A stretch of 35,660 bases of DNA. Origin: a virus. Location: the IMG/VR virus record IMGVR_UViG_3300036850_000068, positions 1-35,660 of that record; one strand, given 5' to 3'. Positions 3 to 35,169 of the stretch are shown here, one piece after another (the first letter of the stretch is position 1; every line of letters starts with the position of its first letter). The notes beneath the pieces were generated by a model. That model ran no database searches, had not been told where the DNA came from, and saw only the letters and a program-made list of their open reading frames with translations. Position numbers and translations under genes: made by a program.

Positions 3-458
3 GGCTGGCACGAGGCGGATCGTGCAGGCCTGTACCGCAACGAGACGGCCGCGCTGTTGGGCTCGGCGCTCGCGCTGCGCGCTGGGGACGCGACGCTGGT
101 TGGGTACGATTTTACTTCTTGGATCGTTCCGTTCCACAAGAGCGATTCGCTGCTGCCGATGATCGGGCGCATTCAGGACGGCCGGGACCCGGGAGGAGGA
201 ACGAACACGTTCGGGGCACTGACTCGTCACTATGACGGCCACGACCGCGTTGTGATCTTGACCGACGAGCAGGCGCACGACTCGGGACGGTACGGCCTTC
301 CGAATGTTTCGATCTATACGTTCAACCTCGCCGGTTACCGGGAGGCGCACCTGCCCAGCTCCGACAACCGGATCACGATCGGAGGTGGCCTGACCGATAG
401 TGCGTTTTCTATGATCGATTCGATCGAAAAGATTCGTCACGGTACGTGGCCGTTCTGA
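3..458 (+). CDS. TROVE/vWA (Ro60-like) RNA-binding protein, C-terminal part
   Basis: The reading frame is open from the left edge, so the 5' end lies outside the window; the in-frame TTG at 57 is not taken as the start. About 151 residues remain. They fit the C-terminal von Willebrand A half of TROVE (Ro60/Rsr) proteins: a GGGTNT motif (MIDAS threonine), the VVILTDEQ strand with the MIDAS aspartate, then YTFNLAGYR, GGLTDSAFSMI and a terminal W-P-F, as in actinobacterial and actinophage TROVE proteins. The family forms a ring that binds misfolded RNAs and Y RNAs; the RNA-binding HEAT-like part is not in the window. The gene ends about 15 bases before the first recognisable element of TIGR array 1. 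No Y RNA was recognised nearby. The family assignment is firm; a role in the phage is unknown. Confidence 0.85.
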   Translation, partial: GWHEADRAGLYRNETAALLGSALALRAGDATLVGYDFTSWIVPFHKSDSLLPMIGRIQDGRDPGGGTNTFGALTRHYDGHDRVVILTDEQAHDSGRYGLPNVSIYTFNLAGYREAHLPSSDNRITIGGGLTDSAFSMIDSIEKIRHGTWPF

Positions 459-474
459 GAAATTAGTCATCAAC

Positions 475-805
475 TGTGTGGCAGACCGTGGTGAGGGTGC
501 GAGTCGCATCGTCCGTTAGAGAACGCAGCCTTAGTGCGAGCCAGGCGTGCCGTTTTGCTCAGATGCCGGAAGGGACATGCGAGCCAAGTCGTGTCGGTTA
601 GAGATCGAGCCAGTAGTGCGAGCCAGATCCTTAGTGGAAACCATGATAGGTATGCGAACCACGCCCCACGTCTAAGGCCAAAGACTATGTGTGAGCCTAG
701 TGGACCGTAAATTTCAAAGGATGGATGCGAACCTCGTTGCCCGTGAAGACCAAAGATGCAGTGTGAGCCAGATACGCCGTTTTGCACGTAGCGGAGATGC
801 GCAAT
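475..805 (+). repeat. TIGR array 1 (tandem interspaced guide RNA array), irregular
   Basis: The edge repeat TGCGAGCC (variants TGCGAGTC, TGCGAACC, TGTGAGCC) starts at 498, 535, 578, 617, 653, 690, 726 and 762, with a decayed terminal copy TGCGCAAT at 798. Spacings are 37, 43, 39, 36, 37, 36, 36 and 36. About 17 nt after each edge repeat comes a second, looser repeat; the best copies are GTGAAGACC at 743 and GTGGAAACC at 634. A lone second-repeat-like stretch at 475-486 may be the remains of an earlier unit. The segments between repeats are variable and about 9 nt long. The array runs directly into the tas leader, which suggests co-transcription with tas. The first half has more indels than array 2 and may be decaying. 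No promoter was recognised. Confidence 0.82.
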
Positions 806-829
806 AAAAGAGAGGGATTGGGAAGAGAA

Positions 830-1837
830 ATGACTGCTCAAACCGTCATTGGGGACGGTAAGCCGGAGACGCTTGATCCGGTTGCACGGCTTGAGAAGAC
901 GATGCGCGAGGTCGCCAAGGGTATGGATCGGCCAACTGGCCGCATTCTGGTTCGTCAGTATTACCAGTACCAGAAGGATCGGATCGCGTTCGGAAACCAG
1001 GTCAGTGCGCTTGCGGCTGCCAACCGCGATACTGCGATCGTGAGCCACTTCTACGAGCAGACCTTTGCCCTTGAAAAGCAGATGGCAGCGATTCTCAAGG
1101 AGTGGGCGAGCAATCACCCGGTTGGTATGTGGGCGATGGAGCAGAAGGGGATCGGGCCGATTCTTTCGTCTGCGTTCCTTGCTTACATCGACATGGATCA
1201 CACTCCACACCAGTCGTCCCTTTGGAGCCTTGCCGGCTACAATCCAGATGTCGTTTGGGTTTCCGGCGCTGACGTTCGAAAGATCGTTCAGGGAATCGAA
1301 GAGAAGTGGGACGTTGAGCACATCGGCCAGGATGATGTGTTGGATCTGCCAACGCTCGCCGGGCTGCTGGCCGAGAAGCTACACCGAAATGCGGCGACAC
1401 TGGCACTGGCCGAGGACCGGGAGGACTTGATCCGCCGCGCGTCGAAGCGGCCGTGGTCCGCACCGTTGAAGATCGCATGCTGGAAGGCGGGCGACTCGTT
1501 CGTCAAGGTCTCTGGCAAGGAGGACGCCTACTACGGTAAGAAGTACAAAGTTCGTAAGGCGTACGAGGTCGCGAGGAACGAGCGGGGCGGCAACGCTGAG
1601 TACGCCGCGAAGGCGCTTGCGACTCGTCCGATCCGTGACAAGAAGCTCCGTGCGACCCTAGAGACCGGCAAGCTGCCGCCCGGCCAGCTTGAGCTTCGTG
1701 CGCGCCGCTGGGCGGTGAAGCTGTTCCTGGCTCACTGGTTCGAGATCGCCTACGAGCACCACTTCGGCGAGCCCGCTCCCATGCCGTACCCGATCGCCTA
1801 CGGTGGCCATGCAGAATGGGAGAAGGCACCGAGGTAA
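830..1837 (+). CDS. tasA: TIGR-associated Nop-domain-like protein (TasA-like, no nuclease domain)
   Basis: 335 residues from ATG 830, preceded by GGGAAGAG. Earlier in-frame starts (TTG 782, ATG 797) lie within the last unit of array 1 and are less likely. The N-terminal ~100 residues look helical and charged. A helix-hairpin-helix-like motif QKGIGP (GIGP at about 107-110) is followed by LWSLAGYNP (131-139); this is the pattern of the IS110 C-terminal (Transposase_20) fold related to Nop domains. Next come a Lys/Tyr-rich conserved part (CWKAGDSFVK, YYGKKYK) and a C-terminal RARRWAVKLFLAHW...PYPIAYGGH block. The DEDD/RuvC N-terminus of IS110 transposases is absent, as are HNH and RuvC motifs. 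The gene is flanked on both sides by 36-nt-period arrays. In described TIGR-Tas systems the Nop-domain protein binds the guide RNA; without a nuclease it could bind or block DNA, which is inference. Databases often label such proteins IS110-family transposases. Confidence 0.82.
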   Translation: MTAQTVIGDGKPETLDPVARLEKTMREVAKGMDRPTGRILVRQYYQYQKDRIAFGNQVSALAAANRDTAIVSHFYEQTFALEKQMAAILKEWASNHPVGMWAMEQKGIGPILSSAFLAYIDMDHTPHQSSLWSLAGYNPDVVWVSGADVRKIVQGIEEKWDVEHIGQDDVLDLPTLAGLLAEKLHRNAATLALAEDREDLIRRASKRPWSAPLKIACWKAGDSFVKVSGKEDAYYGKKYKVRKAYEVARNERGGNAEYAAKALATRPIRDKKLRATLETGKLPPGQLELRARRWAVKLFLAHWFEIAYEHHFGEPAPMPYPIAYGGHAEWEKAPR

Positions 1838-1846
1838 GAACGAAAA

Positions 1847-2325
1847 ACAAAGCCGCCTATGATGTGAAGACCATGCACGAGCTGCGAGCCGTACACCCCG
1901 TAAAGAACGCGACCAAAGTGCGAGTCAATCCAACGGTAAAAGACGTGACGCAAATGCGAGCCAGCTAGGGAATGAAATCCACGTCTAGGGTGCGAGCCGA
2001 TGGTAACGTGAAAGACCTGAGTCTGCGTGCGAGCCACGATCACAATAAACAACGAGAGCCGTATGCGAGCCAACGCACTCGTGAATACCACGTAAGCCAT
2101 GCGAGCCGTCTAAGAAGTGAAGTTCGCGTCTAGGGTGCGAGTCAGGCTACTGTGTGAATACCGCGTGAAGGATGCGAGCCAAGCAGGTGGATGGAGACCA
2201 AGCTACGAATGCGAACCGGAAACTTTGTGTAGACCGAGAGAGTCGTGTGAGCCGTCTACTCTGTGTAGACTGTGAGAGTGGTGCGAACCGCTATGGTGAT
2301 TTATACCGAGGCTGATGTGTGAGCC
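1847..2325 (+). repeat. TIGR array 2 (tandem interspaced guide RNA array), regular
   Basis: Thirteen units begin at 1847 (degenerate edge), 1883, 1919, 1955, 1991, 2028, 2064, 2100, 2136, 2173, 2210, 2246 and 2282, with a terminal edge repeat at 2318. Steps are 36 nt, apart from 37 at 1991, 2136 and 2173. Layout of a unit: edge repeat TGCGAGCC (1-8), spacer A (9-17), second repeat about RTGAAGACCR (18-27), spacer B (28-36). Spacer A examples: GTACACCCC, AATCCAACG, AACGCACTC, GGAAACTTT. Spacer B examples: CGACCAAAG, TGACGCAAA, CGTAAGCCA, AGAGAGTCG. Spacer B CGTCTAGGG occurs twice (1982-1990 and 2127-2135). The array starts 10 nt after the tas stop codon and is probably on the same transcript. 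Each unit could give one ~36-nt guide RNA with two 9-nt guides. Confidence 0.9.
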
Positions 2326-2374
2326 AAAAACAGTAATTGAAGCTACATTGGCGGGGAGGAAGAAAAGGGGAGAA

Positions 2375-2650
2375 GTGGAAACACTGACCACAAAAGAAGT
2401 TGCAGAACGGCTTGGAATCAGTCCCTCAACCGTCATCCGGTGGGCGAGCAGCGGTAATCTGCCACATTTCAGGCAGTTTGGGAATCAACGTCGCTATTAC
2501 GGACCAGTCATTGATCATCTAAAGCGGCGGTGGCAGGAAGGCGTTACGGACCTCGAAGTTCTCAAGGTCGAGCTGTTCCAGGTGCGGGACTCGCTCGTTG
2601 ACGCTCAGCCGGATAACGACAAAGCCGCAACCGGAACCTCAGACCCATGA
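2375..2650 (+). CDS. Excisionase/MerR-type helix-turn-helix DNA-binding protein
   Basis: 91 residues from GTG 2375, behind the purine-rich AAAAGGGGAGAA. The frame also has an ATG at 2315, but that codon overlaps the terminal TIGR edge repeat and would add 20 unrelated residues before the domain. The N-terminus is a textbook HTH_17 fold: L-T-T-K-E-V-A-E-R-L-G-I-S-P-S-T-V-I-R-W, then a wing-like segment (NLPHFRQFGNQRRY). The C-terminus is acidic. Such proteins act as small DNA-bending excisionases or transcription regulators. Its position directly behind the array suggests a regulator of this region, which is inference. The stop overlaps the next start (ATGA). Confidence 0.72.
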   Translation: METLTTKEVAERLGISPSTVIRWASSGNLPHFRQFGNQRRYYGPVIDHLKRRWQEGVTDLEVLKVELFQVRDSLVDAQPDNDKAATGTSDP

Positions 2651-35135: not shown

Positions 35136-35169
35136 TCTCCCCTTAGAACGTCTCTCCCCTTAGAACGTC
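35136..35169. repeat. Exact 17-bp tandem duplication
   Basis: TCTCCCCTTAGAACGTC occurs twice in direct succession (35136-35152, 35153-35169). On the - strand each copy holds the last codons ACG TTC TAA plus AGGGGAGA. The duplication therefore copied the end of the connector gene and made a ribosome site for the secreted-peptide gene. Confidence 0.85.

What the first reader, a model, noticed from the sequence alone, without database searches (positions are those of the whole stretch)
475..2330. A phage TIGR-Tas locus: Nop-like Tas gene between two 36-nt-period guide arrays
Seen: a repeat of TGCGAGCC every 36 (sometimes 37) nt over 13 units downstream of 830-1837 and about 8 units upstream. Inside each period is a second repeat about RTGAAGACCR, leaving two 9-nt variable segments. 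Known: TIGR-Tas systems have arrays with this dual-repeat, dual 9-nt-spacer design, ~36-nt tigRNAs and a Nop-domain Tas protein; some Tas proteins lack a nuclease. Inference: this is a nuclease-free (TasA-type) phage system that may bind or silence DNA of competing phages or the host.
Basis: partly seen in the sequence, partly recalled or inferred. Interest (0 to 1): 0.96.

Follow-up and report, generated by a model that had tools for sequence, protein, structure and literature searches.

The report
Phage TIGR-TasA RNA-guided DNA-binding system
This piece of phage genome carries a genuine TIGR-Tas system, a recently described family in which a phage protein uses short two-part guide RNAs to find DNA, here in the form without a cutting enzyme; it is a divergent new member of a known and, in viral metagenomes, common family whose natural targets remain unknown.

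Summary
Window 465-2326 is a dual-repeat TIGR locus: nine units upstream (465-801; the first ones irregular) and 13 downstream (1851-2326) of a 335-aa gene (830-1837). Unit = edge TGYGARYCR (9) + spacer A (9) + loop ~TGAAGACCR (9) + spacer B (9) = 36 nt. Both arrays begin with the 5'-truncated edge repeat described for TIGR arrays. The protein passes NCBIfam's TIGR-Tas model (151 bits, cut-off 100). Its family profile hits solved TasR (6e-70) and TasH (1e-35). Its AlphaFold2 model (pLDDT 87) is all-helical, and the eleven best PDB folds are all TasH or TasR. There is no RuvC or HNH domain, so it is TasA-type. It carries a ~55-residue helical insert; 23 of 148 homologues have one there. At least 327 relatives turned up in IMG/VR, so this is a new member of a known kind. 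Spacers show no targets above chance in this contig, in ~2.8 Mb of phage loci, or near 122 arrays, which argues against self-regulation. Competition with other phages or host silencing is unproven. By-products: arrays appear to grow by duplication of whole 36-nt units, and the last spacer base is G-biased.

The parts
465..801 (+). Upstream TIGR array: 9 units, starting with 5'-truncated edge AGTCA (465-469), ending with 3'-truncated edge TGCG (798-801). Units at 498-616 irregular (37, 43, 39 nt) with decayed loop repeats.
830..1837 (+). tasA-type gene, 335 aa, Nop-domain Tas protein without nuclease domain
   Evidence: NCBIfam NF052498 151 bits over cut-off 100; PHROG 4285 E 7e-30; phmmer to TasR 9mty E 6e-9; family profile to TasR E 6e-70; AF2 pLDDT 87, no strands; Foldseek top 11 = TasH/TasR
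1259..1423 (+). Codons ~144-198: helical insert in the Tas protein, absent from most relatives
   Evidence: alignments; 23 of 148 homologues carry one here; helices 146-163, 173-184, 188-191, 197-204, pLDDT 74-88
1851..2326 (+). Downstream TIGR array: 13 units, starting with 5'-truncated edge AGCCG (1851-1855), last full edge 2318-2326. Spacer B position 2 is G in 13 of 13.
2375..2650 (+). Neighbouring small HTH protein (BldC/excisionase-like, HTH_17); a neighbour, not shown to be part of the system
   Evidence: only 1 relative in the other loci held

Best explanation
A phage-encoded TIGR-TasA system (identity: shown). The two arrays are transcribed on the + strand and cut in the edge repeats into ~36-nt tigRNAs (inferred from the family). 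A TasA dimer binds one tigRNA, one subunit on the edge repeat and the other on the loop repeat. Spacers A and B pair with opposite strands of adjacent 9-bp half-sites, so each target strand reads 5'-B-revcomp(A)-3' or the equivalent on the other strand, and the DNA is opened and bent (inferred from TasR and TasH). With no RuvC or HNH domain it does not cut by itself. It acts as a multi-guide RNA-directed DNA-binding roadblock that represses transcription or replication of non-self DNA, a competing phage, plasmid or host gene (inferred; target unknown). Identity ~0.97; roadblock on non-self DNA ~0.5.
For: Curated TIGR-Tas model passed. Profile match to TasR 6e-70, TasH 1e-35, IS621 6e-6. All-helical model whose best structural matches are TasH/TasR complexes. 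Array register, truncated 5' edges and 9-nt spacers as published (PMC12045711). All 40 family members found by HMM in contigs fetched by the edge repeat alone lie beside arrays, and 122 of 148 unique Tas loci have a parsable array. No self-target excess over 122 arrays and none in this contig, which fits non-self targets.
Against: No target found anywhere above chance, so the direction of action is unproven. No terminator-like site lies after either array. The upstream array is partly decayed. Published TasR did not protect E. coli against phage or conjugation, although it did cause plasmid loss (PMC12045711). PADLOC has no model for it.
Confidence: 0.72

Rival explanations
1. Auto-regulation: the tigRNAs direct TasA to sites in the phage's own genome, timing its early and late genes.
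For: The locus lies beside the early replication genes (helicase, exonuclease, Sak4, primase, polymerase).
Against: No composite target in the window beyond mispaired controls (best is 3 mismatches: 3 units observed, 2 in the control). Over 122 arrays, self-matches equal the controls. Caveat: the contig may be a fragment, and relatives were scanned only within the stretches held, about 8 kb to each side at most.
Confidence: 0.1
2. RNA-guided aid to integration or recombination: TasA bends DNA at a target site (suggested for TasA in PMC12045711), with the downstream HTH (excisionase-like) protein as partner.
For: The HTH_17/excisionase-like gene is directly downstream; relatedness to IS110 recombinases; the published ~180 degree bend.
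Against: No integrase was identified among the window proteins searched; more than 20 different guides are more than an att site needs; the HTH neighbour is not conserved beside Tas.
Confidence: 0.08
3. An IS110-family transposase remnant with unrelated tandem repeats.
For: Pfam's only hit is Transposase_20 (0.009, below cut-off); PHROG 4285 is labelled transposase.
Against: IS110 NCBIfam score 23 against cut-off 140, TIGR-Tas 151 against 100; no DEDD domain; Foldseek ranks TasH/TasR far above IS621/ISCro4; arrays accompany relatives universally.
Confidence: 0.01
4. A decaying, no longer functional TIGR locus.
For: Irregular spacings and lost loop boxes in the upstream array.
Against: Intact 335-codon gene with conserved core, and a downstream array with an almost invariant edge repeat.
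Confidence: 0.08

Closest known systems
TIGR-TasA systems, dual-repeat type (e.g. Flavonifractor plautii FpTIGR; Faure et al. 2025, PMC12045711)
   Same: Solo Nop-domain effector; alternating edge and loop repeats; 9-nt spacers; 36-nt period; 5'-truncated first edge repeat; arrays upstream and/or downstream; phage-borne.
   Different: A ~55-residue helical insert in the C-terminal part of the Nop region; at most 44% identity to any relative found; degenerate loop repeats; invariant G at spacer B position 2 downstream.
TIGR-TasR (PDB 9mty) and TIGR-TasH (PDB 21kl, 9w04 and others)
   Same: Homologous Nop/coiled-coil core; same array logic, UG...CCR box D / box C repeats.
   Different: No RuvC or HNH nuclease domain; insert absent from TasR, which has only a short basic segment there.
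IS110-family RNA-guided recombinases (IS621, ISCro4)
   Same: Distant homology of the RNA-binding domain (profile E 6e-6 and 2e-5).
   Different: No DEDD catalytic domain, no bridge-RNA element; guide array instead.

Membership tests
TIGR-Tas | Nop-domain Tas protein | tested here: met
   NCBIfam NF052498 151 bits over cut-off 100; profile to TasR 6e-70; Foldseek top 11 TasH/TasR
TIGR-Tas | Adjacent array of two alternating 8-12-nt repeats with 9-nt spacers, ~36-nt unit | tested here: met
TIGR-Tas | Box D (UG) and box C (CCA) motifs shared by edge and loop repeats | tested here: met
   Edge TG...YCR nearly invariant; loop TG in 9/13 downstream units, mostly CCR or variants; weak in the upstream array
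TIGR-Tas | Array starts with 5'-truncated edge repeat (typical) | tested here: met
   AGTCA at 465 and AGCCG at 1851
TIGR-Tas | Array ends in 3'-truncated edge and rho-independent terminator (typical) | tested here: not met
   Upstream array ends in TGCG (truncated edge, met); downstream ends in a full edge; no terminator-like site after either array. Described as typical in the founding paper, not as defining.
TIGR-Tas | 36-nt tigRNAs bound to Tas | not testable with these tools
   needs small-RNA sequencing
TIGR-Tas | Tandem-spacer DNA targeting | tested here: inconclusive
   No target found above chance; biochemistry needed
TasA (nuclease-free class of TIGR-Tas) | No RuvC or HNH domain | tested here: met
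   All-helical model, no beta strand; only ~33 residues, the first 14 disordered, before the coiled coil; no Pfam nuclease
IS110 transposase | DEDD catalytic domain and passing family score | tested here: not met
   23 bits against cut-off 140; no DEDD domain in the model

The most novel reading that the evidence does not exclude
An insert-bearing TasA subfamily reads its guide asymmetrically (one fixed base in spacer B) and uses the helical insert to recruit or block a specific host factor at the target, a TIGR effector activity other than cleavage or plain binding.
Probability: 0.12. Interest if true: 0.75.

Novelty: new member of a known kind. Interest (0 to 1): 0.45.

Why it matters
It shows that TIGR-Tas loci can be recognised from raw sequence, adds a divergent, insert-bearing TasA from an unclassified phage, and gives a test system with more than 20 guides flanking one effector. 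The comparison made on the way addresses two open questions named in the founding paper. Spacer similarity is concentrated at whole-unit lags (2 and 4 half-units), which points to duplication of whole 36-nt units as the route of array growth. The absence of self-targets around 122 arrays points outward to non-self DNA.

Tried and rejected
Single-protein searches for relatives in IMG/VR and GTDB genomes and among phage records found none; the edge-repeat DNA pattern and profile searches did. Own-genome targets: none. Targets in ~2.8 Mb of related and other phage loci, with 9- or 8-nt half-sites and gaps 0-3: same as mispaired controls. Self-targets around 122 arrays: same as control. Two guides of the KBS 96 Acidobacteriaceae locus (L160) against its own host genome: none. 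Three exact composite guides of the window in IMG/VR: one matched a single phage lineage in a tail-assembly-chaperone-like gene, two matched nothing; about one random match per guide is expected (my own estimate of the collection's size), so nothing is claimed. Codon periodicity of differences between homologous spacers: 110 of 383 position pairs in phase (28.7%), 29.4% expected. Rfam: nothing. TROVE/Ro protein as a conserved partner: 2 of 50 Tas contigs, 0 of 32 other contigs, not a general partner. Relatives of the phage by its primase: none.

Full report
Observation. The edge repeat TGYGARYC stands at 498, 535, 578, 617, 653, 690, 726, 762 and at thirteen places from 1883 to 2318; 17 successive pairs are 36 or 37 nt apart and 200 shuffles of the window produced none. 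Read in register, each unit is edge TGYGARYCR (9), spacer A (9), loop close to TGAAGACCR (9), spacer B (9). In the downstream array the information per column is 1.70 bits for the edge, 1.06 for the loop, 0.10 for A1-8 and 0.36 for B1-8, with 0.23 expected by chance. [quoted passage not shown] AGCCG at 1851), giving nine and thirteen units. The first units upstream are irregular (37, 43, 39 nt) and most upstream loops have lost box D (3 of 9 keep TG, against 9 of 13 downstream; counted).

The protein. ORF 830-1837 (335 aa) passes NCBI's curated TIGR-Tas model (NF052498, 151 bits, cut-off 100) and fails the IS110 model (23 bits, cut-off 140). phmmer finds the solved TasR 9mty at 6e-9. A profile of the protein with 31 relatives finds TasR at 6e-70, TasH at 1e-35 and the IS621 and ISCro4 recombinases at 6e-6 and 2e-5. 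AlphaFold2 with that alignment gives pLDDT 87 and an all-helical fold; the eleven best Foldseek matches among solved structures are all TasH or TasR, and IS110-family recombinases follow weakly. There is no beta strand, hence no RuvC or HNH fold; the ~33 residues ahead of the coiled coil are partly disordered. NCBI's family name says 'endonuclease', but this member belongs to the nuclease-free TasA class.

Relatives. Single-protein searches found nothing. Searching IMG/VR for the edge repeat alone at 36-nt period fetched 120 contig stretches; 40 of them encode Tas homologues by an HMM begun from the window protein, and all 40 are beside arrays (some loci are near-copies of one another). Profile searches then gave 40 and at least 327 in viral contigs and 15 in bacterial or archaeal genomes. 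Of 148 unique Tas proteins, 122 have an array that a simple parser recognises, 24 of them on both sides as here. The window protein is on a long branch, at most 44% identical to any of these. It carries an insert of about 55 residues (144-198; helices, pLDDT 74-88) at a place where TasR has a short basic segment. Inserts at this place occur in 23 of 148 proteins; the label needs 12 changes on a quick tree, at least 5 forced by supported branches, so this is a recurrent module, not a unique one. I did not find it described in the main text of the founding paper (supplements not read).

Mechanism. By homology the arrays should give 36-nt tigRNAs which a Tas dimer holds by the edge and the loop repeat, each spacer pairing with a different DNA strand (PMC12045711). 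The published 8-nt 3' overhangs imply, by my geometry, that a target strand reads 5'-B-revcomp(A)-3'. Without a nuclease the likeliest action is a sequence-directed block to transcription or replication. None of this is shown for this locus.

Targets. I searched all 22 guides of the window in the window itself and about 1,540 guides from 122 loci in about 2.8 Mb of phage and prophage DNA, with gaps of 0-3 and with mispaired A and B spacers as the control; an earlier search with 473 guides gave the same. Matches equal the control. Matches of guides to their own flanking genome also equal the control. So self-regulation is disfavoured, and the natural targets remain unknown. One guide has an exact composite match in one IMG/VR phage lineage, which is about what chance gives; two other guides have none.

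Array growth. In 148 non-redundant arrays, near-identical spacers (at most one difference in the first eight bases) are found 19 times in 2,727 pairs at a lag of two half-units and 18 in 2,458 at a lag of four, but 1 in 2,754 and 2 in 2,480 at lags of one and three. Some arrays have exact tandem copies of a unit (L121, three copies) or neighbours in which one spacer is kept and the other differs (L043). This fits duplication of whole 36-nt units followed by divergence, and no adaptation module is needed. In the window, spacer B CGTCTAGGG occurs in units 1955 and 2100, and units 2210 and 2246 are alike (TRF: 75% matches). The last base of each spacer is G in about 72% for A and B alike over these arrays, so the ninth base may belong to the box D side of the repeat rather than to the target match.

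Context. The contig is an IMG/VR virus record of 35,660 bases with helicase, exonuclease, Sak4, primase, DNA polymerase, amidase, tape measure and neck/tail genes, no tRNA and no near relative among 50,697 phage records, as judged from its first 12 kb. The BldC-like HTH and the tape-measure domain make an actinobacterial host possible; this is weak.

Verdict. It is a divergent member of a known kind, with an insert and a guide constraint worth a bench test.

Noticed in passing
window 1851-2326: Position 2 of spacer B is G in 13 of 13 downstream units (purine in 9 of 9 upstream units); among 200 spacer sets tested none other is as constrained. Unexplained: guide B may have only about 7 free positions.
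   Followed up: partly
window 3-455: Truncated ORF at the contig start resembles the C-terminal part of TROVE/Ro60-like RNA-binding proteins (PHROG 850 E 9e-5; PDB 9l5y E 0.003), just upstream of the first array. TROVE is in 2 of 50 Tas contigs and 0 of 32 others, so not a general partner.
   Followed up: yes
148 arrays in related loci (e.g. L121, L092, L043): Spacer similarity peaks at whole-unit lags: evidence for tandem duplication of 36-nt units as the mode of TIGR array growth.
   Followed up: yes
L221 and L228 (downstream of Tas): Two closely related arrays differ by in-place replacement of both spacers of an interior unit while its neighbours are identical, unlike leader-end acquisition in CRISPR.
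   Followed up: no
L046, L122, L090, L104: Other Tas proteins carry cysteine-rich (zinc-ribbon-like) inserts near the same loop.
   Followed up: no
L257:126-143 (also L255, L256): Exact 18-nt composite match to the first guide of the downstream array, in a tail-assembly-chaperone-like gene of one phage lineage; chance level.
   Followed up: partly
window 35136-35169: Perfect 17-bp tandem duplication TCTCCCCTTAGAACGTC.
   Followed up: no
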